Part shown: piece after piece, positions 9,701 through 60,475 of the stretch | Layout: each line of letters begins with the position of its first letter | Numbering within the stretch: the first letter of the stretch is position 1 | Source: Lunularia cruciata | Lineage: Eukaryota > Streptophyta > Marchantiopsida > Lunulariales > Lunulariaceae | Direction of reading: 5' to 3' | Length of the DNA stretch: 64,000 bases | Assembly (NCBI GenBank): GCA_948567375.1 | Contig: OX419758.1 | Coordinates: 66,803,965 to 66,867,964 of the forward strand | Program-made: the position numbers and the translations under genes | Notes under the pieces: generated by a model | The model's input: only the letters and a program-made list of their open reading frames with translations | What the model was told of the DNA's origin: nothing | Database searches by the model: none

Positions 9701-9800
9701 AAAAAGAGAACTTGTACTGAACAATACGAGAGTTACATACAATGGGGACAAAGAGAGGAATAAGAGGAAGGAATGAGCCTGCATGAACAAGAGGAAGGAG
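6720..9800. other. Gene-free region with pyrimidine-rich low-complexity DNA
   Basis: Between about 7300 and 8000 the plus strand is dominated by C and T. The phrase CTCCCCAATTATTTCCTCC and variants recur at about 7610, 7680 and 7735, and CTCCTCTCCTTTGAA is repeated at about 7450-7480. The rest (8000-9800) is AT-rich with scattered CACA-rich stretches and no domain-bearing open frame. An A-run sits at about 9092. Confidence 0.55.
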
Positions 9801-10247
9801 TGTCACGCCATTTGTAGTTCCGCATCTAGATGCTCGGACACTGGAGTTCCAATGATGGTAGTTAGAGTTATTCTAGCAGTTTCTTAGGGACTACTTTCCG
9901 ACGGTTAGATTTTGTGTTCAGGGTACTGACTTCACGGTGGGGCCCACCGTCACTTTGCACCGTTTGCACCGTCGAGTGTGCCGTCAGTGGGACCGTTAGG
10001 GTTTCAGGGCTAGCTCAAGTCCAGGGGGTATAGTTTCAAAGTGAGCTCCAGAGAGCTTACTTCTTTGATGTTGAGCCTTCGAGTTCCTGGCTATGGTGGA
10101 CAGAGGCCGGCGAGCGTCACCTGGATTCTTTATGCTTGAGTGGGTGTGGCTTGACTGTAATCAGTGCCCAATTGTTGGCAGTTTATAGAGTGACAGATCA
10201 AGTACCGATCTGAGTTGAGTTGAGTGGAGAATGTTAAGCAATCTGAT
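9801..10247 (+). repeat. 5' LTR of the methyltransferase element (lacks first ~105 bp)
   Basis: It starts TGTCACGCCATTTG and ends near CTGATTACA before TCAAAGAAG. It matches 19193-19641 with about 17 differences. Compared with the 3' LTR that follows the polypurine tract, it lacks the first ~105 bases (TGTGGCACTTTA to GCACGA). No standard TGGTATCAGA primer binding site is visible just downstream, so the priming tRNA is not identified. Confidence 0.85.
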
Positions 10248-11811
10248 TACATCAAAGAAGTGAAGTCAGGGGGAAATCGGGTGCAGGAACGTTGAGTGTT
10301 GGTGGTAACTCCAAGCTCGGTGGATCGTGGTAGCTCGATTCAGGTTCTGTGTTTCCCTAGTGTGCAGAAGCTTTTGTAGTTGATGCAAATTTGGCAGTTA
10401 GGCGGATGGTGTGCGGAAGCGCTGGCCAAATTTTGAGCAAAGAAGGAGCAATTTTCGAGCAGTGTTGTGATTTTGAGCTCAAGAGGTGAAGGAAGGACCA
10501 ATTTGCTGCGAGTTGGGCTCAGAAAGTGAAATTGAAGGTGGAGTTAGAAAGCTCTTCTCATAAAATTGTGATTTGGAAAAACCCATTTTGTCGGAAAATG
10601 GAAAGTTGGCTCGAGTGGAAAGTTAGCGGGGGATTTGGTGGACATCCATCTTTAGGGTTTATCTCAGATTTTATGTCAGATTTTACGTCAGATTTTTGGG
10701 CCAGAATTGGAGGAGTTTCGCTATTTGGCCAGATTTGGAGAAGTTTCGCTAGTTTGGAGGAGTTTCGCAGATTTGGAGAAGTTTTGCCAATTTTGGAGGA
10801 GGTTCGAAGTGGCAACAAGAAAGGCCTCATTTGGCTGAATTTCGGCGTTTTGAGGCATAGGGCTGTGGGCTATGAGAGGCTACGAAGGCCTAGAAGGGCC
10901 AGCAAGCCAGCTTGCTGGCGTGAGGCTAGCTAGTTTAGTGTAGATCTTGGTCATTGGTTGGCATAATCTGCCTTTCTTGCTAGACTGTGCGCAATAGGGT
11001 TTGACCCCTAGATCTCTTGTTCCTAGACTGGTGCCCTAGCCAACTGGTCCACCCTCACTTGTTGTCATAGTGACTGTGCCACTGTTATCTATACACATGT
11101 AGCTTTGGCTAGTAGAGGCAGTTTGATCCCATTCTTGGTGATCCTGGTAGCTTAGGACTTAGATACGAACTACTCTTATGTCAAATGCCAAATGGTGGCA
11201 CAGTCAGTCCCGTGTTGTGTTATGAGATGGAGGGTTTTTCTTTAGATTTCTTGTGATTGGATCCCCTCCATTCTCTGCTTCCTGTTTGTGCACCATGTTT
11301 GTGTGAGGTGCCCTGACTTTTGAGCGTTGGTGCTCTGGTGTGCTCTCGGTGGTGAGGCTGGAGTGATGACCAGTCAGACTACCTTTGTTTCTCTCCGGTG
11401 AGGCGGGAAGTGATGACCTGCAGACCGTGAGAGTGCGTGTTATGATGGCAGGTTACAGGTTGCCTTTCCCCTAGTGTAGTTATCTCGGTTAGAGTTACAT
11501 TAGTGGGTGGTGTCTAGTTGGTGTTGGCACGCGGTGGTATTGGCACTTGGTGGGATACTTGCGGTTGCGACTTGCGGTTGCAATTGGTGGTTCAGGTTTG
11601 CTGTTGCAGTTACGTGGTCACGACGGAGTTCTTTGGAGATTCTAGAGGAGTTAGCCCTGCAGTACGCAGTGGGTTTACTCGGAGTGGTGCTCGGTATTAG
11701 CCTGTATCTCAGGTCCCAGTGAAGGAGGAGATTGACTCTGAGTTGGAGTTGGACACAGGAGCTGATTCAGTTGAGAGTGCACTTGGTGTGTCCGCACCGT
11801 TGTTGTGGGAC
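10248..11811 (+). other. Long untranslated leader of the methyltransferase element
   Basis: About 1.5 kb separate the 5' LTR from the first in-frame ATG of gag (11812). A 135-codon open stretch at 10526-10933 consists largely of a short repeat (AGTTTCGC and GATTTGGAG phrases, 10680-10800) and looks non-coding. A short hairpin (GCCAGCAAG...CTTGCTGGC, about 10897-10918) lies at its end. Long leaders can hold packaging and dimerisation signals; nothing here proves that role. Confidence 0.5.
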
Positions 11812-13743
11812 ATGGATGAGATTTATGGGGCCTCCAAAAGCCCTAGGCGTTACTCTGGTACAGTGGGTACCATTGAGTTGGATGACTTCATCCAGGAGTT
11901 CGATAGTTGGTGTGATCTGCAGTAGATGCGGAACCCGACTTTGTTCACACCCTTCATGGCATGGAAGGGGTTGTTTCAGCACTTGGAGGATCCACCGATG
12001 GACGACTACCATGAGTTCAGGAGAGCTCATTTGGAGGAGATTGAGTTATGGAGACAGTATTGGTCTCCACACTATGTCTCCATCACTTCAGGCTTGGTGG
12101 CCATGAGTAGATCGGCTGTACCTACGAGTTCTAGCTCGAGTAGTGTTGGTGGAGCTAGTGGAGGTGCACTAGCTGGAGATAGTGCTACTACGAGTGGAGG
12201 TACCGCTGCAGGAGGTGGTGTGGTACCGGGGTTTAACCCCATGGTTGAGTTCTTCCTATGTTTGAGGCAGAACTACCAGGGAGTGCGGACTGACAAGCTG
12301 AGGAGCTTGCAGGAGTTCCAGCGGAAGGCTGGAGAGAGCCTACGCGAGGCATATACTCGCATGAGGCGGCTGATCAGTTTCACTCAGGGAGTTACTGAGG
12401 CCCAGGCAGTCCAGTTTTGGTATGGGATACTGGACAGGGAGTTGCGACGTAGAGTTCGTGATGCTACGTTGTTGCAAGCTACTTCGCCCACTTTGGCAGT
12501 AGTCTTTGGTTTGGCTGAGCGTATTGAGCTCAACATGGTGGAGGAGAGAGTGGTGACAGCTGGATTTGGTAGAGAAACCTCATCCACGGTTGTGACTTCT
12601 TCTAGAGTGCAGCAGAGTGCACCACGCCCAGTTGGTTTTTGAGGACAGGGTGGATAGCCCAGATCCTATGGAGCGAGTGGAGGGCCTAGTGGAGTTAGAC
12701 CCTTACTCTCATTTTCGGGTCAGCAACAGCCAATGAGTGGTGGTGTTGCTTGTTGGACTTGTGGTGGACCTCACCATAGGAGAGAGTGTACTCAGGGCAG
12801 CGGACCTGATACCTCTGGTGCATCACAGCCAGCACAGAGGCAGTGTGAGCATTGCCACAGATTTGGTCACACTAGTGACCGGTGTTTTGACCTACACCCG
12901 GAGTTACGGAGTGGTAGGGCTGCTATGGCAGGTAGTAGAGGAGCTCCAGTTCATGGAGGACGAGGTGGTAGAGGTGGTGGTAGAGGATCTACACCTAGTA
13001 GGGGTGCAGTACTTGCCCTTACTTCTGACACAGCTATGGCTACTCGGATTGAGCAGTTGGAGCAGAGATTGGCTAGTATGGCTATTGCTCAGAGGAGATC
13101 AAATTTGGGTGCTGAGGCTTCCACCTCATATGCTGGTGATAGAGATGCTTTGGACTTCATGTGCGGAGCAGCACAGGTGGATGCATCTGCAGCAGTGACT
13201 AGGAGTGCAGTACGTGCTCCAGAGCCTAGAGGAGCATCAGTGGAGTTGGACCCACAAAGCGGAGAGGTTGGGAGACAGGTCAGACTTCCCCAGTCTTTCA
13301 CGCTATCTCAGGCATTGCAGACGACATCCATGGTTCCTAGACGTCCCAGTGCAAGTGTGGTAGGTGGTGATGGAGTACCTGATGGAGTACCTGCTAGTCA
13401 GCCACCTGCTACTACACAGACTGAGTCTAGCATGATGTTGGGGGCGGCTCAGCTGATTATGCGGCATCCTTTATTTTCAGCCAGTGACATGTTTACATTG
13501 GGAGTTGACCCAGCTCCAGTGTTCCGGTTGGCTGCCATGTTGTGTGAGAGTAGGGATGGTGCGGTTCCTACTACTAGAGCAGAGGTGGTTGGTAGTGGAG
13601 CTGACTTGGTTGAGGAGCATGGGATCCGTTCAGCAACCAGTGGTTTATGGCAGGCAGCAGCGGCTAGACTGGAGGAGTTGCCAGCTAGACCGGCCTTTGA
13701 GAGAGCACGGTTTACACCTGGTGTTGTCCTATTGGATAACTAG
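11812..13743 (+). pseudogene. gag of the methyltransferase element
   Basis: The frame starts at ATG 11812 (the same frame is open from 11719, without an ATG) and runs to 13743 with internal stops at 11923 (TAG), 12640 (TGA), 12655 (TAG) and 13741 (TAG). A capsid-type gag region is visible around 12240-12540 (MVEFFLCLRQNYQGV, SLQEFQRKAGESLREAYTRM, FWYGILDRELRRRV). Two zinc knuckles follow: a variant CWTCGGPHHRREC (C-x2-C-x3-H-x4-C) near 12760 and a canonical CEHCHRFGHTSDRC (C-x2-C-x4-H-x4-C) near 12845. An RGG-rich stretch near 12960-13000 comes next. The protein would form the capsid and bind the element RNA. The frame continues directly into the protease, so gag and pol were probably one polyprotein. 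Confidence 0.85.
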
Positions 13744-14170
13744 AGGGGGATCTTTCATTTAGTGGGACCTTCAGGGAAGGTCTATACACCACAGAGAGTC
13801 TTGTTAGACTCTGGTGCGCAGCCCCTTATGTTGGGGAAGGCTGAAGTTGTCGGTCTGGAGTTACGGAAGACCGATGTGGAGAGGTGTCCATTTTAGATCC
13901 AGACATCTCTTGGTGGTGGTTCGACACAATACATCACACGTGGAGAGCTTGTTGTCCAGGTTCAGCCTGGTCATCCGACTGATAGCTTGGTGGTGAGAGC
14001 TCAGGCTATTACGACGATAGTTGAGTCATATGATGTGCTAGTTGGGGAGCAGTGTTATACCCTATGGGTTTCAGCATTGACTATTGGGAGGAGACAGCCT
14101 CTTATAGACCTGGTTGGCAGTCTGGTGAGGGACGGGTATGTCGCCTACCAGTACGCTTCAGTAGTGGCAG
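13744..14170 (+). pseudogene. Retropepsin (aspartic protease) of the methyltransferase element
   Basis: The catalytic triad is in RVLLDSGAQPLML, with Asp codon 13807-13809. A later block reads YDVLVG in the gag frame, then LYPMGFSIDYWEETASY in the next frame (from 14052), the standard end of the gypsy protease fold. The change of frame inside the domain at about 14050 fits a single-base deletion. A TAG at 13894 also interrupts it. The enzyme would cut the polyprotein. Both lesions make this copy inactive. Confidence 0.8.
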
Positions 14171-15551
14171 TCTTGGCTCACTACAGTCCGGGACCATGGC
14201 AACATCAGTTTTAGCTTTTAGCGGTGCAGTTACTTGGCCTGGTGACTTGTTGGAGGGGAACGTCCATGCAGAGGATACTCCAGTACCAGAGGAGATCACT
14301 CGGCTATGGAGTACGAGTGGGATTGTTCCATCCACCTTGGATGTTCCATTGTGGAGTTCAGAGGAGGCATTGCAGCAGCATGCGGATCAGTTGGTGCAGC
14401 ACGCTTGGAGTGGAGCCTCCGTACCATTAGGGGATGAGTGTGAGGATGAGCCTCCAAAGGCGATTGCTTTGACACCTCTGGATACCACACTCATTGCTTG
14501 GCAGTATCAAGTAGAGGGGATATGTCTATTGGAGTTGTTTGGTGGGATCAGCACCGGACTAGCTACGGTGTTACAGGCGGGTATCCGAGTACAGAGGTAC
14601 TTGTATGTAGAGAGAGATGAGACTGCTAGGCGAGTCTCTCTACATCATGTGGCACACTTGGCCTATCGGTATCCGGAGTTATTACCGATGTCAGCAGTCA
14701 GAGGTTACCAAAAGGCCTTACCATGAGACATTTCCTTACTGGGGGCGCATGACCTAGAGAGGCATGGGCCTATTCACTTGGTGATTTCTGGATGGCCATG
14801 TCAGGGACATACACATGCAGGCTGCGGTTTGGGTCTTCAGGATCCTCGTTCTTGTGTGTTTTGGGAGATGTTACGGATATTACGACATCTCCAGGTTCAT
14901 CAGTCTGTTTCTCCAGCTTACCTTTTGGAGAACGTTCCTTTGTTGGGTGATTCTCGCACTAGAGTGGTGGCGAGTACACATCAGGTCCATTCTTGGATGG
15001 GACCTGCTGTATTGTTAGATGCAGCCAGAGTGGGATCACGGGCTCATCGTCTTCGTCTTTGGTGGACAAACCTCTTACCCAGAGAGGTTCTACAACATAG
15101 TTATGATGGGATTCAGCGACTAGACCACATTCTTGTTGATGATATCTTGGATGTTGGACGTCAGTCTCAGACAGTGGTAGTGGCTGATAGGTCACCTATG
15201 GCAATGGTAAACCTAGTTGGACAGCCTAGAGCTGCATTTCCCACACTCATGAGTTTCCCAGGCTCTCATGCTTTTCGAGAGGGAGGACCTGGACTTGTTT
15301 GGGACTCACAATTACAGCAGTTGGTGGATCCCAATGCTGATGAGAGAGAGCGGGCAATGGGTTTTCGCACCGGTATTACCGCTGTTCCAGCAGTGTCAGA
15401 GGCATCCAGGCGTCAAGTGTTAGGTCAGGCTATGGACCTGAACTGTTTGACCTGGATTGTGAGCCTTGGTTTGGCAGAGCAGCGTAGGATGCGCTTGATA
15501 GGCATCACCACTCGGACACTTGTGAGCCCTGTGCCTATTGAGACGATTTAG
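14171..15551 (+). pseudogene. C5-cytosine DNA methyltransferase domain inside pol
   Basis: After a linker (14171-14516) the motifs of a C5-cytosine methyltransferase appear in the usual, non-permuted order: motif I LLELFGGISTGL (about 14524-14559, SAM binding), motif IV SGWPCQGHTHAG (catalytic Cys codon 14799-14801), motif VI LLENVP (Glu 14928-14930), motif VIII RAHRLRLWW (about 15039-15065), motif IX region DERERAMGFRTG (about 15340-15375) and motif X RRQVLGQAMDLN. The GI.TG form of motif I and the motif IX-X wording resemble DNMT3-type enzymes, while PCQ resembles DNMT1 and bacterial enzymes. All catalytic residues are present. The only lesions are TGA at 14724 between motifs I and IV and TAG at 15549. 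The frame is shared with RT downstream, so it is a polyprotein domain, not a separate gene. It would methylate element cDNA or target chromatin. Confidence 0.93.
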
Positions 15552-17297
15552 GCACATGCTGGGGGTGATGGACCGAGTGGACATGGTATTCTTGGGACAC
15601 ATCCAATAGCTACTAGGGAGAGTGGTCTACTTGGAGTCCATCTAGGTGAGCGTGGGCTACTTGGATTACACCCTTGGTCCACATGGGATGCAGCCAGAGG
15701 ACGTATGGAGCTTGCAGCCAGAGTGGAGGGAGTTTTTCACACAGAGGTTGGGACCTCTAGTGGTCGGGAGCATGACACCATTGCTCCCAAGGGCCCAGTG
15801 TAGCAGCCAGTCAGTACGTCTTCCACTCCTACTACAATTACAGAGGATACTTGGGAGCCAGATCTTGGACCCAAGCTTACTGGAGAGGAAAGACAAAAGG
15901 TTTGGAGGTTCTTGAGGAGTCACACGAGTTGTTTTGCCTTCAGTATGAAGGATTTGGGTGCTCTGAAGGGACCTGGTATACGGATTGAGCTGACTAGCAA
16001 CACACCAGTTTTCCAATGTCCTTATCGATATAGTGAGATGGAGAGGACATTGATTCAAAGCCGGAGTATTGACCTTTTTGGGGCTAGTTTGGTAGAGATT
16101 TCACATGGAGAGTATGCATCAGCGACAGTGATGCCAGCCAAGAAAGATATGCATGGCAACTATACAAATAGGCGGATGTGTGGAGATTACCGTCCTATCA
16201 ACCGACAGACCAGGGCTGATCGGTATGCCATGCCTACATCGGAGGAGATTTTTGATGCAATTGGGCATGCAAAGGTCTTCAGTACTTTGGATCATCGAGC
16301 GGGATATCATCAGTTGCCGATCAGGGAGGAGGATAAGTCCAAGACAGCATTTTGGGCTATTGATCCTCACGGCAAGGATGTGTTATATCAATGGAGGTTC
16401 TTACCATTTGGGTTAAAGAACGCTCCCGCTGAGTTCCAGAGGGTCATGGATAGGATCCTAGCTGGATTGGATTTTGCTCGGTGCTATATTGATGACATTT
16501 TGGTTTATAGCACTACTGTGGAGGAGCATGAGAGACAGTTGTTGGAGGTGTTTGAGAGGTTGAGATCTCATGGACTCAAATTACATCCTGGGAAGTGTAG
16601 GTTCTTCCATGAGCAGGTTGAGTATTTGGGTCACACTATCTACCCCGGAGGACTTGGTGTTCAGCAGACCAAGGTGGAGGCTATTGCACGTATTCCTCGG
16701 CCTACGGATGTGAGCAGAGTGCAAGCATTCCTTGGGTTGGCAAACTTCTATCGCCGCTATGTTAGAGGATTTAGTGCCATTGCTAAGGCCTTGACGAAGC
16801 TGACCAAGCTTACACAGGAGTGGTGTTGGGGAGATGAGCATGAGAGAGCTTTTGTAGAGCTCAAGGAGAGGTTGACATCTATTCCTATTTTGAGGAGACC
16901 GATCAGGGGACGACCATTTCAGGTTCACACTGATTGGAGTATGTTGGGGCTTGGAGTGGTGCTCACCCAACATGATGATGAGGAGAAGGAGTTTGTGGTG
17001 TCCTATGCTAGTCGCTCCAACAATTCAGCGGAGGCGAAGTATAGTTCATATGAGGGAGAGTGCTTGGCAGCAGTTTGGGCAGTAGCACATTTCCGATGTT
17101 ACCTATTTGGTAACCCCTTCACTCTCGTCACTGATCATCAGCCGCTGAAGTGGTTGATGGAGTCCGACAAGCTTTTAGGGAAGCTTGCACGATGGGCTCT
17201 GATTTTACAAGAGTATGATTTTATGGTTGTTCACAAACCTGGAGTGGTGAACCGTGATGCAGATGGGTTGAGTAGAAACCCATGTCCCAGCCAGTAG
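15552..17297 (+). pseudogene. Reverse transcriptase and RNase H of the methyltransferase element
   Basis: From 15804 to 17294 the frame is uninterrupted. RT shows VMPAKKDMHGNYTNRRMCGDYR (fingers, about 16130-16190; here read in parts), FSTLDHRAGYHQLPI, FLPFGLKNAPAEFQRVMD and the catalytic YIDD (Asp codons 16491 and 16494). The connection has HPGKCRFF and FLGLANFYRRYV. RNase H shows FQVHTDWSMLGLGVVL, the SYEGECLAAVWA block, TDHQPLKWLM and NRDADGLSR, so all four acidic positions are present. A TAG at 15801 lies ahead of RT and a TAG at 17295 follows RNase H. It would copy element RNA into DNA in the capsid. Length and order match Ty3/gypsy. Confidence 0.92.
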
Positions 17298-18720
17298 GAT
17301 CAGACCGGAGCACGTTGGCATGGTGAGACAGATGAGGAGATGGTGCCAGGTTGGCATGCATCGGTCTTTCTGTGTATATTTGCAGAGACTTTGGTGGTAT
17401 CTCTCTCAGCGCATACAGGAGGAGTTATTGAGGTCACAGATCCAGAGAGTGAAGATATTGGTACAGTTCAGCGAGACATTCATGATGATGTCTTAGTGAT
17501 GGACTATCTTCGCACTGGTGTTGTGGGTGGCACAGTTGGGGCCAAGGAGAGAGACCGTGTTCTTCAGCGAGCCAGACGGTTCAGATTGGAGGGTAGACAC
17601 CTTTTGCATGTATGGGAGGATGGTAGAGTGCGAGTAGTACCACTTCCATCACAGAGACCACAGTTGGTCCGTCATGCTCATGAGGAGCTAGGACATTTGG
17701 AGTAAAGCATGCATATAGCTTACTTTAGAGTCATTATTGGTGGCGCGGTATGCAGACCGAGGTACAGCAGTTTGTTGCCGGATGTATGGTTTGTGACCGA
17801 GTTAGAGCATCATTCAATGCTCCTACGCCACAGTTACACCCATTACCTATCATGGGATTGGGTTACCGTTGGATTTTGGACTTTGCCGGACCTTTACCGC
17901 TGACTGTGAGACATCATCGATATGTTTTGGTGATGGTGGAGCACTTCTCCAAGTGGATTGAGTTGGTGGCACTTCCTGACAAGTCTAGTGAAGGGACAGC
18001 TTACTCGTTCCTGGATCGAGTTCTTAGTCATTTTGGTGCACCAGCTGAGGTTTTGACTGATCAGGGTACAGAGTTCTTGGGAGAGTTTCAGGTCTTGTGT
18101 GACAAGGCTTTGATTGATCATCATACTACATCCCGAGATCACCCTGAGGCAGATGGCTTAGCAGAGAGAGTGGTTTAGACGGTGAAGAGAGGATTGCGAA
18201 AGTATGGTTTGCAGAGAGGCCACTTGGGAGATTGGGATCTCCAGTTACCTTGGTTGGCCATGGGCTATCGATTCAGCCGGCAAGCCTCCTTAGCATCCTT
18301 CTCTCCATACTTTCTACTCTATGGACAGGATCCAGATTTACCTACAGCCATTTGTCGAGATGCTACTGTAGTTTTGGACTTGGATGACCCCGATGTATGG
18401 ATGAGCGCATGTTCTCAGCGGGCAGAGATCTTTTGGAGAGTGATGCCGATGGCCTTTGAGAACTTGGCGATTGCTCAGCATAGAGATACTTTACGCTATG
18501 CTACCATTCAAGGAGGAGGTTATAGACCCTCGATCCGTCGATTTCATCCAGGTGACTATGTATATCTACAACAGATAGCACCGACGACACTTGATGTTTC
18601 TACAGGCCGCACTATCTTGAGAGTGCACGAGGTTTTGCCATCTGGAGTCCTTTTGTTAGAAGGACGTGATGGTGTTGTTTGGAAGGATCATGTGCGCAAT
18701 TGTACACCATGCCACCTTCC
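17298..18720 (+). pseudogene. Integrase of the methyltransferase element
   Basis: The N-terminal HHCC finger is HAHEELGH in one frame followed, after an apparent 1-bp deletion near 17700, by CMVCDRV in the next frame. The catalytic core has Asp 17879-17881 (ILDFAGP), Asp 18059-18061 (LTDQGTEF) and Glu 18164-18166 (GLAERVV). The spacing of 34 residues between the last two is one less than the common DD35E. TAG at 17726 and at 18176 interrupt the frame. The C-terminal part (LPWLAMGYRF, SPYFLLYGQDP, YVYLQQIAP, LRVHEVLPSG) is the usual gypsy GPY/F-like region. It would insert the cDNA. The frame runs on into a PHD finger instead of a chromodomain. Confidence 0.88.
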
Positions 18721-18775
18721 AAACATTGATGGTACGATGGACCCAAGCTTGGCACTTGTACGTGCAGGCTTGAGG

Positions 18776-18916
18776 TGTATGTTATGTGGCTCTTCTGGTG
18801 GAGCTGCTACTATGTTAGTGTGTGATAGCTGTTCGAGAGGATGGCATATGGCATGTATGACTCCTCCCCTCACGGTGGTTCCTCAGGGACAGTGGTTATG
18901 TCCTAGATGTACTTGA
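18776..18916 (+). pseudogene. PHD finger at the integrase C-terminus
   Basis: The last 46 residues of the polyprotein carry C4HC3 spacing: CMLC, then CDSC after 11 residues, GWH (His), MAC, and finally CPRC before the TGA at 18914. VCDSCSRGWHMAC and QGQWLCPRC are near-canonical PHD wording. PHD fingers read the histone H3 tail, often the K4 methylation state. In this position the domain replaces the chromodomain of chromoviruses and would be expected to steer integration to particular chromatin. All zinc ligands are intact. It belongs to the integrase frame opened after the TAG at 18176, so it is part of a dead copy. Confidence 0.92.
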
Positions 18917-19071
18917 CCTATAGCTAGTTCATTCTTTATATGGTATAGATTGCAGACAGGCGACTAACGATGGGGCTCCATAGCACCCGGCCTCCTGATC
19001 TTTGGCCATTAGAGGGTATACCATATACTTAGAGTAGATGGCTATCTGGAGTTAGAGGGACCTAACCGCCA

Positions 19072-19085
19072 GCTAGGGGGGCGAT
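19072..19085 (+). other. Polypurine tract of the methyltransferase element
   Basis: The run AGGGGGGCGAT directly precedes TGTGGCACTTTA at 19086. A purine run abutting a TGT start is the normal plus-strand primer of LTR elements. This places the true 3' LTR start at 19086 rather than at 19193. Confidence 0.65.
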
Positions 19086-19747
19086 TGTGGCACTTTAGAG
19101 TCTATGTATGACTTATGTGTGAGTTTTGCTTTTATAGTGTATGATGTTGACAGCGATGTATGTTGTGTAGCGATGTATATACGCACGATAGCTGTCATGC
19201 CATTTGTAGTTCCGCATCTAGATGCTCGGACACTGGAGTTCCAGTGATGGTAGTTAGAGTTATTCTAGCAGTTTCTTAGGGACTACTTTCCGACGGTTAG
19301 ATTTTGTGTTCGGGGTACTGACTTCAAGGTGGGGCCCACCGTCACTTTGCACCATTTGCGCCGTCGAGTGTGCCGTCAACGGGACCGTTAGGGTTTCAGG
19401 GCTAGCTCGAGTTCAGGGGGTATAGTTTTGAAGTGAGCTCCAGAGAGCTCACTTCTTTGATGTTGAGCCTTCGAGTTCCTGGCTATGGTGGACAGAGGCC
19501 GGCGAGCGTCACCTGGATTCTCTATGCTTGAGTGAGTGTGGCTTGACTGTAATCAGTGCCCAGTTGTTGGCAGTTTATAGAGTGACAGATCAAGTACTGA
19601 TCTGAGTTGAGTTGAGTGGAGAATGTTAAGCAATCTGATTATTGTGGCACTTTAGAGTCTATGTATGACTTATGTGTGAGTTTTGCTTTTATAGTGTATG
19701 ATGTTGACAGCGATGTATGTTGTGTAGCGATGTATATATGCACGACA
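19086..19747 (+). repeat. 3' LTR followed by a second copy of its first 103 bp
   Basis: 19086-19641 is a full LTR of about 556 bp. Its first 103 bases (19086-19188) are repeated almost exactly at 19643-19745, straight after the LTR end. The 5' LTR lacks this same segment. The pattern is a circular permutation of the LTR pair. Confidence 0.8.
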
Positions 19748-20592
19748 GGAGCATGAGTGCCAGAGTGCAAAGAGGAGTGTGAGGTAACAAGTGAAGTAAT
19801 GTGCACACAATAGAAGTCCCAATACTATTCATGAACCAGAAATCCTAGATGTGAATAATAAAACTCAATAGAATACTCAAGGTGACCTTGACAGGAATTT
19901 TGTGATATGTAATTTGTGAACAACAAATTCTTGTGGTGATGATAATTGAGTGCAAGTATGAGGTTTAGTGATAGGAGAGGTGATGGAGAAGCTGGATTGA
20001 TACATGAGAAGGAAAGATTAATAAGATTAAAAATTATATTAGCAAGAATTTTCTTTCAAAAACTAACTAGCAGGATCTTTATCAAGGGGTCTTAATTAGC
20101 CATTAAGATTTATGGCAATATGTTAAAAGTACTATATCACCATAAACATCTAAGGGAACAGGTTTTGATTTCATATAAAATTTCTATGGTCATTGGGTTC
20201 TCCACCTATAAACCAATTTTCACTTCTTGATCTGCTGCACATTAACTTTTCCCGGTTACCCATAAATGACTTTATGGAATCTTATAGACCATCAAAAAAG
20301 CTAATTTTAAAACCCCTTATTGTGCCTAGTGTTCATGTTTGAGATCAACCAAGTCCAACTATCTCTCTACATTGTAATCTTCCTATCTTACATTGGTAGG
20401 AAGTTTGGAGTGCCACAAAGAATTGTCTCTTCTACCTGTATTATATGTCTCAACAAAATAAATGGTTGATGTAGAGATGTTATTGGCCATATTTCTGCCT
20501 ATTCTCTTGGCAGAGGCTTGGATTCCTCTTTTGCAAGTGAGGAGGTCTTTCCTCGCTAAAACTCTAGATATGGGATGAAACATAAAAAGATG

Positions 20593-26929: not shown

Positions 26930-27640
26930 TCTAGTGAGTAGACCCATCTACCAACTCTCACCAAAGGAGTTGGAGGAGTTACAAACAACACTTACAGAGT
27001 TGTTGGAGAAGGACTTCATATGACATAGCACCTCCTCTTTGGGGAGCACCAGTACTAGTTGTTCCAAAGAAGGATGTAGGACTTCATTTCTATATTGATT
27101 ATTGTGGGCTCAATAAGCAAATAGTGAAGAATGCATATCCCTTGCCTCGGATCGATGATTTTCTTGATTAATTGAGTGGAGCACAATACTTTTCCAAGTT
27201 GGATCTTTGTAGCAGCTATCAACAAATCTTCATTGATAGGGAGGATGTGCAAAAGACTACCTTTCACGTGAGGTATGGGCATTTTGAGTGGAAAGTTCTA
27301 CCTTTTGGGCTCATTAATGCTCTAGCAATCTTCATGGATCAGATGCATCAGGTGTTGGATGGACTATTGGATTGGTACATGGTTGTGTTCTTAGATGATA
27401 TCTTAATCTATAGCAAGATAGAGGTAGACCACATGAATCATATGCAAGAAGCCCTAAGACAAGTACGACAATGGAAATTTTATTGTAAGAAGTCTAAGTG
27501 TACCTTTTGGCAAAAAGAAGTTACCTTCTTGGGTCACAAGATCTTGTCGGAGGGGGATCAAGATAGAAGAGGGAATAATCAAGGCCATTACTTATTGGCC
27601 TACTCCAAAGGATGCTATAGAAGTACGTGCATTTAATGGA
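26930..27640 (+). pseudogene. Reverse transcriptase relic of the older chromovirus
   Basis: It reads [37 protein letters not shown], then the open piece 27172-27636 with YFSKLDLCSSYQQI, LPFGLINALAIFMDQMH and the catalytic FLDDILIYSK, and KKSKCTFWQKEVTFLGHKI. A frameshift near 27555 (GDQDRR) and stops at 27019 and 27171 destroy it. Confidence 0.85.
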
Positions 27641-28190
27641 TTGGCCAATTTTTACCGATGGTTCATCCATTATTATACTCATGTAGCTGCACCATTGACT
27701 GACCTCTTGGGGAAAAACTTGAGCTTCCAATGGACCACCAAGCACAAAGAAGTATTCTAGAAGTTGAAACATATGGTGTTGTCAAGGCCCATTCTTCAAG
27801 CATATGATCCTCATCTACTCTATGTGGTTGATTTTGATGCTTCTAACTTTGCAATTGGAGTCGTGTTGCAATAGGAATTCCCAAATGGACTACATCTCAT
27901 TACCTTTGTATCTCACCGACTAAATATTGCTAAAAGAAATTACTCTACTCAAGATCAAGAACAACTTGGAGTGGTATATGCCACCAAGGTATGGGGCATT
28001 ATCTCTTGGGGAAACAAGTGATCATGCAAACTGATCATAAACCATTGTTATAGACCGTACACTTTGAACACATGAAGAGTCAACATCATCAATGGAAGGA
28101 ACAACTCCAATTGTTTGATATCAAACTTGAGTACAAACTAGGTCGGTTCCATGTCATCCTTGATGCTCTATCACAATGACTTGATTTGAA
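27641..28190 (+). pseudogene. RNase H relic of the older chromovirus
   Basis: It reads GLANFYRWFIHYYTHVAAPL, FQWTTKHKEVF, VVDFDASNFAIGVVLQ, RNYSTQDQEQLGVVYATK, MQTDHKPLL and FHVILDALSQ, the equivalents of the younger copy. Asp and Glu positions are mostly retained, but stops occur near 27758 and 27871 and there is a frameshift near 27990. Confidence 0.75.
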
Positions 28191-28199
28191 GTCTCTTCC

Positions 28200-29400
28200 T
28201 CTCATCACGGCAGCAATTACGACAATGTCAATTGACCCCAAGGTCCAACATAAGTTTTGATCAACTTTACAACAAGAATCCTTCTTCCAAATGGTACATG
28301 GTCATCTTACAGCATGCAACAAGAAGTACAACACCTTCTCCTTCAAGGAAAGGCCTTCTATTCCATGAGAACCAGATCTATTTTCCAACCAAAGGTGATC
28401 TCCGAGTTGTGCGCCTTCAAGAAGCCCATGATTTACTAATAGTTGGTCACATAGGTGTGGACAAGACCTTGGGTACCCTCCAATGCCAATGGTGGTGGCC
28501 CAACATGACACAAGATGTTTGAGAGTTTGTCCGATTGTGTGAGAGCTACTAATGTAACAAGGCCAGCAACCAGAAGCCGAGTGGACTCCTTCAACCACTC
28601 CCCATTCCATTCTCTCAATAGGAACACGTGAGCTTGGATCTCATTCCATCCTTGCCCAAGACAAAGCAAAGACACATAGCAATCGTGGTGCTTGTGGATA
28701 AGCTTAGTAAGCAAATCCACTTGGCACCAACCTTTGATATTGAGGATGCTCCAACCTTAGCGCAAATCTACTTTGACAATGTCTTCAAGCATCATGGGAT
28801 GCCAAGTGTACTCATCTCCAACCATGATTCTTGATTCACTGGGAAGTTTTGGCAAGCACTCTTCCTGATACTCGGCACCAAACTTGCTTTGTCCATGGCC
28901 TATCATCCTCAAACTGATGGATAAACCAAATGTGAAAAATCATACCTCGGAGGATATGTTGCGTGCCTTCGTCAATGCTCACCATACCAATTGGGATGAA
29001 TGTCTTGCAGTTGCAAAATTAGCCTACAATACTTCCAAATAGGCAAGCACCAGATTTTCTCCTTTCTTTCTCAATTTTGACCAAGATCTGCTTGTTCTAG
29101 ATTCTCTTCTTGCTCCTCCTCCATCTCAGGTCCCTCATACCTCAACCTTCTTGACCACCATATCTCAATCTCTCCAACAAGCCAATCTCATCTCCTTGTT
29201 GCTCAGAATTGTCAGAAACAATATGCAGACCACCGTCGTTGTGATCTCACCTTTGAAGTTGGCGATAAAGTCCTATTATCCTCTAGTAACCTACCTCTCC
29301 CACTTGATACTCAAGTTTGTAAACTTGCCCCTAATTGGCTAGGACCCTTTGATGTCACCTAAATCATCTCTCTTATTGCTTATCAACTTGCCTTACCTTG
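28200..29400 (+). pseudogene. Integrase relic of the older chromovirus
   Basis: The N-terminal part reads LRVVRLQEAHDLLIVGHIG (His ligands) and LGTLQCQWWWPN. The core reads MSLDLIPSLPKTKQRH (first Asp), VDKLSKQIHLAP and FKHHGMPSVLISNHDS, where the second catalytic Asp is changed to Asn. The DDE glutamate segment near 28920-28960 is shifted out of frame. It cannot encode an active integrase. Confidence 0.8.
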
Positions 29401-36867: not shown

Positions 36868-37329
36868 TTATGTTAGTAGGGCTAAGATTGACCGCAAAAG
36901 AGCCAGCAAACTAGCTGTTAAAGGTAGAGCCACGGTCAGGACAAGCTGGAGTACGTTGTTCACGAGTCCGAAAACCTGGACGACCAGCTGCCTTGTCAGT
37001 AAGTTCAGTGAGATCACCACGAGGTCAACCGCAACATCAGCAGCAATGGTGACAGTCCCGATCACAGTCCCTGCAGCGTCGCTAAGTTGAAGTACGGTTG
37101 GTAAAGTGCTCGTTACTAGGACCGATACAGTTGTGTTACTGAGAGCAGGCAATGGCTGGACTGTCGCCAGTGTACCATCAGGGAAAAGCTGGCGTATAAG
37201 GAGATCCGCATTAATGTTGTTAACAACATTCAACGTGTCTGTGATGGTCGTTTGTGCGGCCACTCTCGTCGAGAAAGTGGATAGCACCACAACAAGAGCA
37301 AGCATAGCAACGGTGGATTTGGCCTCCAT
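36868..37329 (-). CDS. Small secreted hydrophobic protein, copy 1
   Basis: This is an intronless frame of 153 codons ending in TAA. I chose ATG 37329 because MEAKSTVAMLALVVVLS is a classical signal peptide (charged start, hydrophobic core, small residues VAAQ before the cut near residue 26). The paralogue starts at the same place; the frame is open further upstream (to 37476) without signal-like sequence. The mature part (about 127 aa) has no cysteine and is dominated by Val, Leu, Thr and Ala: INADLLIRQLFPDGTL, SVLVTSTLPTVLQL, AADVAVDLVVISLNLL, then a very hydrophobic tail ending LLALLRSILALLT. Two or three membrane-like segments are possible. I do not recognise the family. The frame is open in both copies at about 90% identity despite decayed surroundings, which suggests function. 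Confidence 0.75.
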   Translation of the reverse strand: MEAKSTVAMLALVVVLSTFSTRVAAQTTITDTLNVVNNINADLLIRQLFPDGTLATVQPLPALSNTTVSVLVTSTLPTVLQLSDAAGTVIGTVTIAADVAVDLVVISLNLLTRQLVVQVFGLVNNVLQLVLTVALPLTASLLALLRSILALLT

Positions 37330-37489
37330 CTTGAACGGGTGGATATGAATATGGTGGTGAGTATATGACCGGTCCAAGCAGTAAGTAACCAAGCGAACAG
37401 AAGCTGGATGAGATCGGTAGCAAATGTGAAACGTTAAGGGATTGCGAGTGAACTCAAGGCTCTGAATGATATTCACGGAGGCAAGGCAT

Positions 37490-37503
37490 GTATCTTATAG
37501 CAG
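37490..37503 (-). promoter_or_regulatory. Possible TATA box of secreted-protein gene copy 1
   Basis: On the minus strand CTATAAGATA lies about 165 bp upstream of the chosen ATG. The same CTATAAGAT is conserved at the same distance before copy 2 (51735-51744). Transcription from it would leave a leader of about 130 nt. Confidence 0.35.
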
Positions 37504-51744: not shown

Positions 51745-51901
51745 AATGCCTTGCCTCATATCATTCATAGCCTTGAGTTCACTCCCAATCGCTAATCGTT
51801 TCACATTTGCTGCCCCATCTCATCTAGCTCCTGTTCGCTTCGTTACTTACTGGTGGGACCGGTCATATACTCACCACCATATGCATATCCACCCGTTCAA
51901 G

Positions 51902-52363
51902 ATGGATGCCAAATCCACCGTTGCTATGCTTGCTCTCGTTGTGGTGCTATCCGCTTTCTCGACGAGAGTGGCCGCACAAACGACCATCCTAGACACATTG
52001 AGTGTTGTTAACAACATTAATGCGGATCTCGTTATACGCCAGCTTTTCCCTAATGGTACACTGGGGCCAGTCCAGACATTGCCTGCTCTCAGTAACACAA
52101 TTGTATCGGTCCTAGTAACGAGCACTTTACCCACCGTACTGCAACTTCTCGACGCTGCAGGGACTGTGATCGGGACTATCACCATTGCTGCTGATGTTGC
52201 GGTTGACCTCGTGGTGATCGCACTGAACTTACTGACGAGTCAGCTGGTCGTCCAGGTTTTCGGACTGGTGAACAGCGTACTCCAGCTTGTCCTGACCGTG
52301 GCTCTACCTTTAACAGCTAGTTTGCTGGCTCTTTTGCGGTCAATCTTAGCCCTACTAGCATAA
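51902..52363 (+). CDS. Small secreted hydrophobic protein, copy 2
   Basis: An intronless 153-codon frame ending in TAA. The chosen ATG gives MDAKSTVAMLALVVVLSAFS, a signal peptide with likely cleavage after VAAQ. It differs from copy 1 at about 16 residues, among them T18A, L44V, D51N, A55G, T56P and P59T; length and hydrophobic pattern are unchanged and there are no cysteines. The C-terminal 45 residues (QLVVQVFGLVN.VLQLVLTVALPL and LLALLRSILALL) are nearly invariant, which points to constraint there. Upstream about 300 bp and downstream about 900 bp are also well conserved with copy 1. The function is unknown: a secreted or cell-wall/cuticle-associated hydrophobic protein is possible, but nothing in the sequence proves it. 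Confidence 0.75.
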   Translation: MDAKSTVAMLALVVVLSAFSTRVAAQTTILDTLSVVNNINADLVIRQLFPNGTLGPVQTLPALSNTIVSVLVTSTLPTVLQLLDAAGTVIGTITIAADVAVDLVVIALNLLTSQLVVQVFGLVNSVLQLVLTVALPLTASLLALLRSILALLA

Positions 52364-57225: not shown

Positions 57226-58390
57226 ATGGATGGAATTTATGGACCACCAAATCCACTTCCACCAAATCCACTTCCACCAAACCATTGGGACTTTCATGTC
57301 CAGATATTACCAAAGCATCGTTTCACACAATTCATCACCTCGCACTTTGGGCAGGATTTTCTACATATGATCACCGTGTTAGAGGAACCTTTGATACTTC
57401 CAGTTGTAACTTATGGAGAATGGTGGACGTGTTGTATCTATGTGTTAATCAACTAGGTAAAATGAGTGTAGTGGAATAGAGTAGTAGCGATGGCGGCAAT
57501 ACCGGATGTTATCCTTACAATGCAACAACAAATCGAGCATCTTACTTGATTGTTGGATGAACGAGACCAGCAACGACGAGAACAGATAGACAGAGCACCA
57601 GTTTGAGATGGAGAAGATTACATTCGATTTCCAAAACCCAAGGTGTTTGAAGGCAAGAATCTTCCAAGCACTATGGAGAATTTTGTGTTTGATTGCGAAC
57701 GTTACTTTGAAGCCACCAATCTTCAAGACGAGCGGAACAAATTCTCTTGGCTTCTAGCCAATTGGATGGCGTGGCAAAACTTTGGTGGCGATTTTGAGTA
57801 GAAAGAGCTGAACGACAAATTGTTACACCAATTTTGACATGGGCAGAATTCAAAGATGCAATACTTGGTTGATTTCAAACAATAAATGCCACCCGAGCCG
57901 CACGAGATAAATTGGCGGAGTTGAGGAAGATTGGCTCAGTGAGAAGCTACATCACACAATTTCAGAACATCATCATGCAAAGTCCAGATATCCAAGAAGG
58001 TGAAGTTCTGGATCGATTTCTGCGAGGATTGAAGTCACAAACCAAATTGGAGGTGACCATGCAGGAGCCACAAAACATAGAAGAAGCTATGCAATTGGCT
58101 GAGTGTTTTGATTCCTTGGTTGCGACAAATTGGTCTCGACCTCGACTTGCACAAAGCCTACCAGTACACTACACACGAGTGGAAGAACCGATACTAATGG
58201 AGATTGATGCTATCCAATGAAGACCACTTGGCATAGCAAATAGAGAAAGATTATGACAAAATGGAGGTTGCTTTTATTGTCACCAAGTTGGACATCGCAT
58301 TGCATGTCCACTTCGGAATGGGCGATCTTGACAAGTTGCCCAGATGGAGTTTGTGGAAAAGAATGATCAGGGAAACAAAGAATCCCAATA
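57226..58390 (+). pseudogene. gag of the younger chromovirus
   Basis: Start ATG 57226 (MDGIYGPPNPLPPN). Readable parts are VILTMQQQIEHLT, FPKPKVFEGKNLPSTMENFV, LTWAEFKDAILG and the open piece 57912-58220 with RKIGSVRSYITQFQNIIM, VLDRFLRGLKSQTKLEV and EEAMQLAECFDSLV, the Retrotrans_gag pattern. A canonical zinc knuckle CFYCHQVGHRIAC lies at about 58270-58310. A shift near 57740 and stops near 57800, 57872 and 58218 break it. The protein would form the particle and bind RNA. Confidence 0.85.
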
Positions 58391-58417
58391 GGAGATTTTG
58401 AGCCGCCTACTGGGAGC

Positions 58418-58855
58418 TTGATTAGTTCCAATGGGATTGAAGGCTCAACCTATGCAAGTTTGCTTCACTTGCAAGGTACAATATCTAATCGGGGTTGTAG
58501 GATTTTGGTTGATTTTGGAAGTTCAGAGAATTGCATGTCTATGCAAGTAGCAAAGGAATTGGGTATTCCTATCAAGCCAGTGATTGGAAGTAGTTTGATG
58601 ATGGCGGATGGTAGAAAAGGTTCTGCATTCCGCACCTCGCATCCTGTTACCTTCAAGATTGGGAAGGAGTATTTGGAGTGTATGAGGTTTGTAGTGGCAC
58701 CTCTAGACTATGATATCATTCTAGGTCTACCTTGGCTTGAACATCATAAGGTTCAATTCGATTGGACCCGACGTCAAATTCAAGTACAACACCAAGGTAG
58801 GAATTTCCGATTAGGTTGTCTGGCACCTCTAAGTAAGACGCCTAAGAATAGTTAG
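58418..58855 (+). pseudogene. Aspartic protease of the younger chromovirus
   Basis: Open for 145 codons. The catalytic region is ILVDFGSSENCMSM: the triad Ser of the family's DSGSS is Phe here (a C-to-T change would do this), while the catalytic Asp remains. Downstream, LGIPIKPVIGSSLMMADGR, FVVAPLDYDIILGLPWLEHH and VQFDWTRRQIQV are typical for chromovirus protease. A stop (58855) separates it from the repeat linker. Confidence 0.85.
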
Positions 58856-59033
58856 TCCCAAGATGGGAAATTTGTTGAGAAGGTAGCCATAGAGCAAATC
58901 TGGAAGGGAGATGAGTCCCAAGATGGGAAGTTTGCCAAGAAGGCAACCATGGAGCAAGCTTGGAAGAGAGATGAGTCCCTAGAAGGGAAGTTTGTTAATG
59001 AAGCAGCCATAAAGCAAGCTTTGGAGGAAGATA
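58854..59033 (+). repeat. Three 60-bp (20-aa) tandem repeats between protease and RT
   Basis: Units at 58854, 58914 and 58974 encode SQDGKFVEKVAIEQIWKGDE-like repeats in the RT frame. Identity between units is about 75-85%. They are present in the older copy too, so they predate both insertions. They form a charged linker of unknown role. Confidence 0.92.
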
Positions 59034-59970: not shown

Positions 59971-60475
59971 CGTGGCTGCACCATTGATTGACCTCTCAGG
60001 AAAGAACTCGAGCTTCCAATGGACCACCAAGCATGAAGAAGCATTCCAGAAGTTAAAGCATATGGTGTCTTCAAGACCCATTCTTCAACCATATGATCCT
60101 CAACTACCTTGTGTGGTTGATTTTGATGCTTCTAACTTTGCAATTGGAGCTGTGTTGCAACAAGAATTTCCAGATGGACTACATCCTATTGCCTTTGTGT
60201 CTCATTGACTAAATACAGCTGAAAGAAATTACTCTGCTCAAGATCGGGAACAACTTGCAATGGGATATGCCACCAAGGTATGGAGGCATTATCTCTTGGG
60301 GAAACAAGTGATCATGCAAACTGATCACAAGCCATTGTTGCAGACCTTACATCTAGAGCACATGAAGAGTCAACATCACCGATGGGAAGAGCAACTCCAA
60401 TTGTTCAACATCAAACTTGAGTACAAACCAGGTTGGTTCCATGTCATCCCTGATGCTCTATCACGATGACCTGAT
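59971..60475 (+). pseudogene. RNase H of the younger chromovirus
   Basis: It reads FQWTTKHEEAFQKLKHMV, VVDFDASNFAIGAVLQQEF (first Asp), HPIAFVSH then stop TGA, RNYSAQDREQLAM (the conserved Glu of EL.A is changed to Gln), MQTDHKPLLQTL (Asp) and FHVIPDALSR at the end. Same frame as RT. Confidence 0.9.

What the first reader, a model, noticed from the sequence alone, without database searches (positions are those of the whole stretch)
14171..15551. A Ty3/gypsy retrotransposon that encodes its own DNA cytosine methyltransferase between protease and RT
Seen: motifs I, IV (Pro-Cys), VI (ENV), VIII, IX and X of a C5-cytosine methyltransferase, in canonical order, lie in the same frame as the protease end and RT, between LTRs. 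Known: Ty3/gypsy pol normally has no methyltransferase. Retrotransposons with captured DNMTs have been described in dinoflagellates and charophytes (de Mendoza and colleagues, 2018, as I recall it). Inference: the element could methylate its own cDNA or insertion site, trading expression for tolerance. If the host is a land plant, this extends the phenomenon, and the gag-PR-MTase-RT-RH-INT-PHD architecture may be undescribed.
Basis: partly seen in the sequence, partly recalled or inferred. Interest (0 to 1): 0.92.

Follow-up and report, generated by a model that had tools for sequence, protein, structure and literature searches.

The report
Retrotransposon carrying a DNA-methylating enzyme
A moss- or liverwort-like plant genome holds many young copies of a jumping element that carries its own DNA-methylating enzyme, and its unusual ends suggest that it inserts itself from a circular DNA form; such enzyme-carrying elements were known from algae.

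Summary
Window 9801-19747 is a decayed copy of a Ty3-type element with a DNMT3-type cytosine methyltransferase between protease and RT, and a PHD finger after a DDE integrase. It is no one-off capture: of 34 family matches fetched with the MTase as bait, 33 run on into the same RT, and variants shared between copies show purifying selection. Relatives occur in Marchantia, Riccia, Calypogeia, Sphagnum, Klebsormidium nitens and many metagenomes. The kind is known (KnitGypsy-Dnmt3, de Mendoza 2018); my searches found no land-plant report.

Beyond that report: (1) Gag-protease-MTase ends at an in-frame TAG-CAG-CCA, the TMV-type readthrough signal, before RT (TAG-CAG in 33 of 33 copies). (2) The 15 nt after the left repeat are the complement of a stretch inside the repeat (Tf1-like self-priming). 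(3) Copies are not LTR-coding-LTR but A-coding-B-A-B with TGTC..GACA ends and 4-bp target duplications (13 of 16); the A2|B2 joint recurs with leftover primer-site bases, as a linearised two-LTR circle would give.

Not shown: MTase activity, readthrough, circles. The likeliest role, methylating its own cDNA or circle before insertion, is inference.

The parts
9797..9800 (.). target-site duplication, left (GGAG)
   Evidence: matches 19748-19751
9801..10248 (+). repeat A1 (448 nt), left end of the element, begins TGTC, ends CTGATT
   Evidence: 96.2% identical to A2; 18 left ends read (20 tried) all begin at the same base
10029..10033 (+). TATA-like pentamer, 28 nt upstream of the self-primer sequence
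   Evidence: read; weak motif, not tested statistically
10057..10071 (+). self-primer: predicted 5' end of the RNA, complementary to the primer-binding site
   Evidence: the A2 version pairs 15 of 15 with the site, the A1 version 14 of 15
10249..10263 (+). primer-binding site (ACATCAAAGAAGTGA) directly after A1
11812..13740 (+). ORF1, Gag part with two CCHC zinc knuckles read by eye (12.7-12.9 kb); several stops in this copy
   Evidence: start by homology to Marchantia P0122; Retrotrans_gag E 0.006 only, below its cut-off
13744..14045 (+). aspartic protease (LLDSGA); frame changes near its end in this copy
   Evidence: Asp_protease_2 in the relative P0144
14520..15470 (+). DNMT3-type C5-cytosine methyltransferase, with TGA at 14724
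   Evidence: fold of the relative P0003:
15801..15809 (+). TAG-CAG-CCA: end of ORF1, in-frame stop in a type I readthrough context (UAG-CAR-YYA)
   Evidence: TAG-CAG in 33 of 33 other copies covering it, CARYYA in 32 of 33; 5 of 2111 TAGs in the window have this context
15804..17294 (+). ORF2: reverse transcriptase and RNase H, in the frame of the MTase
   Evidence: RVT_1 E 1.1e-31, RT_RNaseH E 2.4e-35
17640..18770 (+). DDE integrase (H2C2 and rve), approximate limits; broken in this copy
   Evidence: frames; PF17921 and PF00665 in the copy L012 = P0190
18776..18910 (+). PHD finger, C-terminal
   Evidence: PF00628 E 1.6e-11
19075..19083 (+). polypurine tract (AGGGGGGCG) directly before B1
   Evidence: unchanged in 8 of 9 copies shown
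19084..19190 (+). repeat B1 (107 nt)
   Evidence: 98.1% identical to B2
19191..19192 (+). 2-nt spacer GC; B1-GC-A2 forms the palindrome GACA-GC-TGTC in 6 of 9 copies (GATA-GC-TGTC in the window)
19193..19640 (+). repeat A2 (448 nt)
19641..19747 (+). repeat B2 (107 nt), right end of the element, ends GACA
19748..19751 (.). target-site duplication, right (GGAG)

Best explanation
A decayed copy of a young, high-copy Ty3-type family that belongs with the DNMT3-carrying elements first seen in Klebsormidium. Inferred working: the RNA starts at about 10057 in A1; its first 15 nt fold back on the primer-binding site after A1 and prime reverse transcription (Tf1-like). ORF1 gives Gag-protease-MTase in bulk; ribosomes pass the TAG-CAG-CCA stop in a minority of cases and add RT-RNase H-integrase-PHD. 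Ordinary strand transfers, with the plus strand begun at the PPT before B1, make a linear cDNA with LTRs of the form B-GC-A. Its ends are joined into a two-LTR circle; integrase cuts one LTR at GACA-GC-TGTC and inserts A-coding-B-A-B with a 4-bp target duplication. The MTase, packaged with Gag, most likely methylates CG sites of the cDNA or circle, or of the insertion site; the PHD finger probably tethers integrase to chromatin. Shown by sequence: domains, selection on the MTase, stop codon, complementarity, ends, target duplications, recurrent joint. Inferred: readthrough, self-priming as such, circle, enzymatic activity, role.
For: MTase: catalytic Cys in 112 of 115, motif VI Glu in 113 of 117, motif VIII Arg in 111 of 116, against a median column majority of 0.54; the 50 PDB matches listed are all DNMT3 entries, best E 4.9e-14. 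Selection: MTase core, CG/CHG sites left out: shared variants 12 silent to 5 replacing, singletons 31 to 61, Fisher p 0.006; the same test on RT agrees. Co-divergence of MTase and RT: (45 elements, r 0.68, 0 of 2000 permutations). Stop codon. Self-priming complement: (14 of 17 copies pair 15 of 15). Ends and target duplications: 13 of 16 copies with both ends read (12, L010). Circle joint: 1504 places; of 100 listed 95 blunt, 3 with +A, 2 with +ACATC; 10 places with +ACATC; these do not form one group. DDE integrase.
Against: No activity was measured; the K. nitens enzyme gave no methylation in yeast, which its authors call inconclusive. The copies are young, so an unchanged TAG among them is weak evidence of selection; no RNA structure follows it (z 0.15 to 0.58). 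Window-wide, the readthrough nonamer is no commoner than chance (5 found, 5.2 expected). The CG > CHG > CHH decay of A1/A2 can be due to host methylation alone. 3 of 16 copies lack the target duplication. A circle is inferred, not seen. Only 5 of the 10 variant-joint copies were compared; one of the 5 has another variant copy as nearest neighbour and one a tie, so a partly shared origin is not excluded. The MTase clade's split from host DNMTs rests on host rows one third filled.
Confidence: 0.6

Rival explanations
1. The MTase is a passenger without catalytic use, kept for a structural or nucleic-acid-binding role in the Gag-protease-MTase particle.
For: No activity is shown; the K. nitens enzyme was silent in yeast; the motif IV proline is Glu in 30 of 116 relatives.
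Against: Catalytic Cys, Glu and Arg are kept in 96-97% of relatives at a median column majority of 0.54; shared variants show purifying selection.
Confidence: 0.12
2. The MTase acts after insertion, on the host chromatin round new copies, and lowers the harm of insertions, rather than on the cDNA.
For: The PHD finger on integrase could bring the complex to a chosen chromatin state; A1/A2 decay suggests that integrated copies were methylated at CG and CHG.
Against: The host has exons that look like its own DRM and DNMT3 (named by eye), which suffice for that decay; nothing ties the decay to the element's enzyme.
Confidence: 0.25
3. ORF2 is reached by splicing or by reinitiation at an internal ATG, not by readthrough of TAG.
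For: Some Marchantia gene models join MTase and RT across a gap (P0128); the first ATG of ORF2 is at codon 48; relatives P0191-P0194 have ORF2 models that begin with Met near the same place.
Against: ORF1 and ORF2 share one frame with a single stop between them in copies L012 and L016, and the stop sits in the UAG-CAR-YYA context, which 5 of 2111 TAGs in the window have.
Confidence: 0.25
4. The A-coding-B-A-B form is copied as such from parent to daughter by an unusual template switch, without a two-LTR circle.
For: The same repeat order exists in tyrosine-recombinase PAT elements and is reported for KnitGypsy-Dnmt3 (legends).
Against: The A2|B2 joint equals the U5 end joined to the U3 start and recurs with extra primer-site bases in copies that do not form one group; the integrase is DDE with 4-bp duplications.
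Confidence: 0.3
5. Chance capture of a host DNMT by this one copy.
For: None found.
Against: 33 of 34 fetched MTase matches run on into the same RT; the retroelement MTases group apart from two host exons (support 97; host rows only one third filled).
Confidence: 0.01

Closest known systems
KnitGypsy-Dnmt3 of Klebsormidium nitens (de Mendoza et al. 2018, PMC5890265; parts 1-4 of 7 and found passages read)
   Same: Ty3/gypsy domains, intronless DNMT3-type MTase in the coding region, repeats said to be as in DIRS (A-coding-B-A-B), purifying selection on the DNMT.
   Different: Land-plant-like host. The main text has no hit for PHD, liverwort, moss or Marchantia, and mentions target duplications only for the LINE elements; in the parts read there is no stop codon before RT and no self-priming. 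It places the DNMT in the Pol ORF and calls the acquisition independent in the K. nitens lineage; the RT clade here suggests an older, wider one.
SymbioDIRS-Dnmt3 (dinoflagellates, same paper)
   Same: DNMT3-type MTase in a retroelement with A-coding-B-A-B repeats.
   Different: Tyrosine recombinase and DIRS RT; here a DDE integrase and a Ty3 RT.
Tf1/sushi-type self-primed Ty3 elements (PMC7175516, passages read)
   Same: The start of the RNA (predicted here) is complementary to the site after the left repeat; 15 nt here, 11 in Tf1.
   Different: Permuted repeats, MTase and PHD; the RNA start is not mapped.
Tobamovirus-type (type I) stop-codon readthrough, UAG-CAR-YYA (PMC3542737, passages read)
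   Same: Exact motif at an in-frame TAG between two ORFs.
   Different: In a retroelement, after the MTase, not in a viral replicase; readthrough not measured.
PAT/Ngaro split-direct-repeat elements (PMC4157794, passages read)
   Same: Repeat order A1-B1-A2-B2.
   Different: They use a tyrosine recombinase; here DDE integrase and 4-bp target duplications.

Membership tests
DNMT3-carrying Ty3/gypsy elements (KnitGypsy-Dnmt3 type) | Ty3/gypsy RT-RNase H-DDE integrase order | tested here: met
   Ty3 is the best PDB sequence match of the relative P0144
DNMT3-carrying Ty3/gypsy elements (KnitGypsy-Dnmt3 type) | DNMT3-type MTase inside the coding region | tested here: met
   fold of relative P0003
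DNMT3-carrying Ty3/gypsy elements (KnitGypsy-Dnmt3 type) | A-coding-B-A-B repeats | tested here: met
DNMT3-carrying Ty3/gypsy elements (KnitGypsy-Dnmt3 type) | same RT/MTase clade as K. nitens | tested here: met
   RT clade of 80 rows, support 97, holds P0232 and P0248; in the MTase tree P0180 is a long, unresolved branch
DNMT3-carrying Ty3/gypsy elements (KnitGypsy-Dnmt3 type) | purifying selection on the DNMT | tested here: met
DNMT3-carrying Ty3/gypsy elements (KnitGypsy-Dnmt3 type) | methyltransferase activity | not testable with these tools
   inconclusive for K. nitens too
chromoviruses | chromodomain after integrase | tested here: not met
   PHD finger instead, no chromodomain named by Pfam in P0190
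DIRS/PAT elements | tyrosine recombinase | tested here: not met
   rve-type DDE integrase
self-primed (Tf1-type) elements | RNA 5' end complementary to the primer-binding site | tested here: inconclusive
   complementarity of 15 nt met; the RNA start is not mapped
type I stop-codon readthrough | UAG-CAR-YYA at an in-frame stop followed by an open frame | tested here: met
   passage of ribosomes not testable here

The most novel reading that the evidence does not exclude
A retroelement with a DDE integrase whose normal integration precursor is a two-LTR circle: integrase cuts inside one LTR at a palindrome of abutted ends (GACA-GC-TGTC), so that every provirus has the permuted form A-coding-B-A-B with a freshly made LTR-LTR joint near its right end. 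The element also makes a DNMT3-type methyltransferase at Gag level by placing it before a readthrough stop, and could methylate this circle before it inserts.
Probability: 0.45. Interest if true: 0.87.

Novelty: new variant of a known kind. Interest (0 to 1): 0.76.

Why it matters
It moves DNMT-carrying retrotransposons from one charophyte and dinoflagellates into land plants, with relatives in the laboratory plant Marchantia, so the open question why a parasite would carry the enzyme used to silence it becomes testable. The MTase before a readthrough stop predicts an enzyme made in Gag amounts. The permuted ends with 4-bp duplications point to integration from two-LTR circles by a DDE integrase; as I recall, that was proposed for retroviruses in the 1980s and then dropped. 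The recurrent joint makes it checkable by sequencing extrachromosomal DNA.

Tried and rejected
Chance insertion of a host gene: rejected. Ordinary LTR element with a truncated left LTR: rejected, since all 18 left ends read begin at the same TGTC without B before it and all 17 right ends read carry A2-B2 (ends of 20 copies were tried: left not found in L018 and L023, right not found in L019, L023 and L028). An RNA structure after the TAG: none. The TAG at 15549, first taken for the family's stop (note), proved private to the window; the conserved one is 15801. Related DNA in viral contigs: none. No collection offered here holds the DNA of the Marchantia, Sphagnum or Klebsormidium elements, so stop codon and repeat order could not be checked there. 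MTase-less relatives in the same genome: not answered (below). The 34 family matches were found with the MTase as bait, so that they carry it is by construction; what they show is the common RT and family. A label ('noMT_full': more than 150 residues upstream without MTase) is coarse; P0240 and P0205 may have an MTase in a separate ORF. The rows P0248 and P0193 were labelled MTase-bearing there because a partner protein lies on a contig of the same name or length. In one search my right end was 3 nt too long and my primer site 1 nt off; coordinates were settled. In one search L010 met filler N's at my join and is counted. The search scored 123 of 2161 candidates, so copy numbers are lower bounds; region L013 was requested off target and covers only part. 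Copies were mostly picked for long open frames, so the intact fraction (15 of 35, L013 among them with 60% covered) is biased upwards.

Full report
What is there. Window 9801-19747 is one insertion. From left to right: A1, a primer-binding site, Gag with two zinc knuckles (by eye), protease, a C5-cytosine methyltransferase, a stop codon at 15801, RT-RNase H, DDE integrase, PHD finger, polypurine tract, B1, A2, B2. The MTase is real: Pfam E 6.2e-7 on the clean part of the window frame, and DNMT3A leads the PDB sequence hits (E 0.0005). A model of the relative P0003 (mean pLDDT 68.7, pTM 0.70) has DNMT3 entries in all 50 PDB matches listed, best E 4.9e-14. The window copy is dead: stops at 14724 and 15549 inside the MTase frame, others in Gag, protease, after RNase H and in integrase, and frame changes near 14045 and 17,700.

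It is a family, not an accident. The window lies in an unnamed 565.8-Mb genome of 74 contigs; a PF00145 search scored 123 matches of 2161 candidates. The four best-scoring are not this family: L002 has motifs IX-X before motif I, the order that I recall as the mark of DRM; L001 and L004 look to me like DNMT3-like exons, and L003 is a different match. I fetched 34 further matches (L005-L038); all 34 align to the window's MTase-RT stretch at 94.6-96.8% identity, two of them (L013, L036) only in part, and 33 run on into RT. As the MTase was the bait, its presence is by construction. The pattern that spans the A2|B2 joint occurs 1504 times, with 0 for the reversed control; this counts solo A-B remains too.

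Selection. Among 35 rows (window plus 34), variants shared by three or more copies in the MTase core, with CG- and CHG-type transitions left out, are 12 silent to 5 replacing, while singletons are 31 to 61 (Fisher p 0.006); with all sites it is 31:33 against 49:104, p 0.03; the linker after the MTase shows no clear difference (all sites 4:6 against 12:43, p 0.25; without CG/CHG 1:3 against 9:26, p 1). In 14 copies with RT covered (three of them about half), without CG/CHG, the MTase gives 10:2 against 21:46 (p 0.001) and RT 4:0 against 12:33 (p 0.009). So the MTase is kept by selection in the lineages that multiply, as RT is. Across 117 related MTases the catalytic Cys is kept in 112 of 115, the motif VI Glu in 113 of 117 and the first motif VIII Arg in 111 of 116; the motif IV proline is Glu in 30 of 116; the median column majority is 0.54.

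Relatives. Protein searches (120 of 307, 68 of 68 and 120 of 295 hits listed) find close relatives named from Marchantia polymorpha, M. paleacea, Riccia sorocarpa, Calypogeia fissa, Sphagnum troendelagicum and S. fallax, more distant ones from Klebsormidium nitens (P0180, P0232, P0240, P0248, P0254), Closterium, Monoraphidium (P0189, 16% covered) and an entry labelled Tetstr1, and many unnamed metagenome proteins. The host is therefore very probably a bryophyte, but it is not named. In the MTase tree (106 rows) the window family sits in a 28-row clade with named liverwort and moss rows (support 99). For the RT tree (96 rows) I left out 19 rows to thin the set (own copies, near kin and outgroup rows) and short ones. 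All 45 rows labelled with an MTase lie in one 80-row clade (support 97), with 3 rows that I labelled MTase-less and 32 of unknown upstream; of the 16 rows outside, 12 show no MTase upstream and 4 have too little upstream to tell. MTase and RT distances of 45 elements agree (r 0.68, 0 of 2000 permutations; 3 of the 45 are two ORFs put together by copy or contig). One clade (31 RT rows, support 100) carries the MTase after RNase H instead of before RT. The simplest reading is one old acquisition with one relocation, older than the split of Klebsormidium and land plants or spread between them, rather than an independent event in Klebsormidium as de Mendoza et al. proposed. The trees were short searches without bootstrap.

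Two ORFs and a special stop. In copies with long frames, ORF1 (Gag-protease-MTase, open frame up to 1428 codons) and ORF2 (RT-RNase H-integrase-PHD, 1037 codons) lie in one frame with one stop between (L012, L016). In 33 of 33 other copies that cover it the stop reads TAG-CAG, and in 32 of 33 it fits UAG-CAR-YYA (exception L029, CAG-CTT), the type I readthrough signal of tobamoviruses (PMC3542737, passages). Of 2111 TAGs on both strands of the window, 5 have this context, as many as chance predicts; what counts is that one sits at the stop that must be passed. The copies are young, so conservation among them is weak evidence; the stronger point is that the copies which multiplied carried the stop. 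No structure follows. Related ORF1s of Marchantia (P0122, P0123) and metagenomes (P0134-P0141) also end after the MTase, while P0144 and P0145 run on into RT. If readthrough is a few per cent, as in known cases (recalled), the MTase is made in large excess over RT.

Priming. The 15 nt right after A1 (10249-10263) are the exact complement of TCACTTCTTTGATGT inside A2; in the window A1 itself has one further change. In the other copies the site reads ACATCAGAGAAGTGA and its partner TCACTTCTCTGATGT. Of 17 copies with both sites read, 14 pair 15 of 15 between A1 and the site; the window, L020 and L025 have one mismatch in A1. The window has changed in A1, A2 and the site together, as expected if the site is copied from the primer; but this is one event and C-to-T decay is common here. 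None of 500 shuffles of A (blocks of two) reached the 13-nt match of the window's A1. A TATA-like TATAG lies 28 nt upstream. This matches self-priming in Tf1 (PMC7175516, passages).

Ends. Ends of 20 copies were tried; 16 had both read. Thirteen have a 4-bp target duplication (12; L010, TAGC); L015 and L016 have none, and L020 runs on into another A repeat. All 18 left ends read begin TGTC, and all 17 right ends read have A2 followed by B2. B1 and A2 are joined by GC, which makes GACA-GC-TGTC in 6 of 9 copies shown; a polypurine tract stands directly before B1 (8 of 9 unchanged). Read by retroviral rules, the LTR is B-GC-A (557 nt), from the PPT to the primer-binding site. The A2|B2 joint is then exactly the U5 end joined to the U3 start. 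A linear cDNA B-GC-A-coding-B-GC-A, circularised and cut at GACA-GC-TGTC in one LTR, gives A-coding-B-GC-A|B, which is what is seen; a one-LTR circle or a linear molecule would not give it. Of the first 100 of 1504 joints, 95 are blunt, 3 keep one more base and 2 keep ACATC, the first five bases of the primer-binding site (the pattern cannot show joints that lost bases); ACATC occurs 10 times in the genome. Six of these were fetched and five compared over 1.24 kb with nine other copies (L082 dropped, 36% covered): the nearest neighbour is a blunt copy in 3 of 5, a tie in 1 and another ACATC copy in 1; mean distances are 0.032 within, 0.034 to others and 0.037 among others; the tree does not group them. 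So the joint seems to be made anew, which favours circles over copying; the small set and the shallow tree are limits.

Methylation traces. A1/A2 pairs of eight copies differ at 89 sites, 80 of them transitions: CG 36 (34 sites in A), CHG 21 (47), CHH 23 (139), other 9; without the odd L016 it is 24, 10, 10 and 1. Inserted copies were thus probably methylated at CG and CHG, but host enzymes can explain that. A1-A2 divergence is 0.2-3.8% in the six full-length pairs other than L016 (10%); L010 is read over 74 nt only.

What it does. The likeliest role, which I hold at about 40%, is de novo CG methylation of the element's own cDNA or circle, since the enzyme is made with Gag and would be inside the particle; next is methylation at the insertion site (25%), then a non-catalytic role (12%). 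The PHD finger is probably a chromatin tether: the PHD of relative P0144 is closest to KDM5/Lid PHD fingers in the PDB; its histone mark is unknown.

Known and new. DNMT3-carrying Ty3 elements with DIRS-like repeats are in print for K. nitens (PMC5890265; parts 1-4 of 7 and found passages read). A 2025 survey cites that report for streptophytes, calling the elements LTR Copia and DIRS (PMC12344493, passages). Searches for bryophyte cases and for PHD listed none in the held open-licence library, which lacks most subscription papers; two papers on bryophyte chromatin and plant DNMT3 do not mention them in the passages seen, and a plant LTR-element survey has no hit for methyltransferase, PHD or Marchantia in its main text. 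For split direct repeats in gypsy elements one search listed five papers (passages of one read), for readthrough in retroelements one search (passages of two of the papers read), for self-priming one (passages of two read); these are too few to claim that no one has reported the combination. New as far as I could see: land-plant-like host and scale, PHD, the readthrough stop, self-priming, 4-bp duplications with permuted repeats, and the recurrent joint. I file it as a new variant of a known kind.

Noticed in passing
P0158, P0168, P0183 and others: A large metagenome clade carries the same MTase after RNase H, before integrase; P0158, P0168 and P0183 have a further C-terminal stretch with a DPWAG motif that looks to the eye like another methyltransferase, though Pfam did not name it in P0158.
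   Followed up: partly
P0192 (1083 aa): ORF2 relative, 68% identical, from a transcriptome assembly (eukprot, TRINITY): some family member is transcribed in an unnamed eukaryote.
   Followed up: no
window 57873-62079, + strand: Remains of an ordinary Ty3 element with a chromodomain-like end by eye (EYEVDRIL..TEYKVLWKGYP); other RT and integrase pieces at 27172-28519.
   Followed up: no
window 36871-37494 (-) and 51746-52360 (+): Two very similar ORFs for a small secreted-looking protein with a leucine/valine-rich body, in opposite orientation.
   Followed up: no
L014: This copy seems to be inserted in another copy of the same family: both its flanks look like element sequence.
   Followed up: no
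L020 right end (L053): B2 is followed by GC-TGTC, as in a head-to-tail tandem of two elements.
   Followed up: no
window 9926-9935 and about 10260-10269: A second, 10-nt complementarity (CTGACTTCAC) between A1 and the bases at and after the primer-binding site.
   Followed up: no
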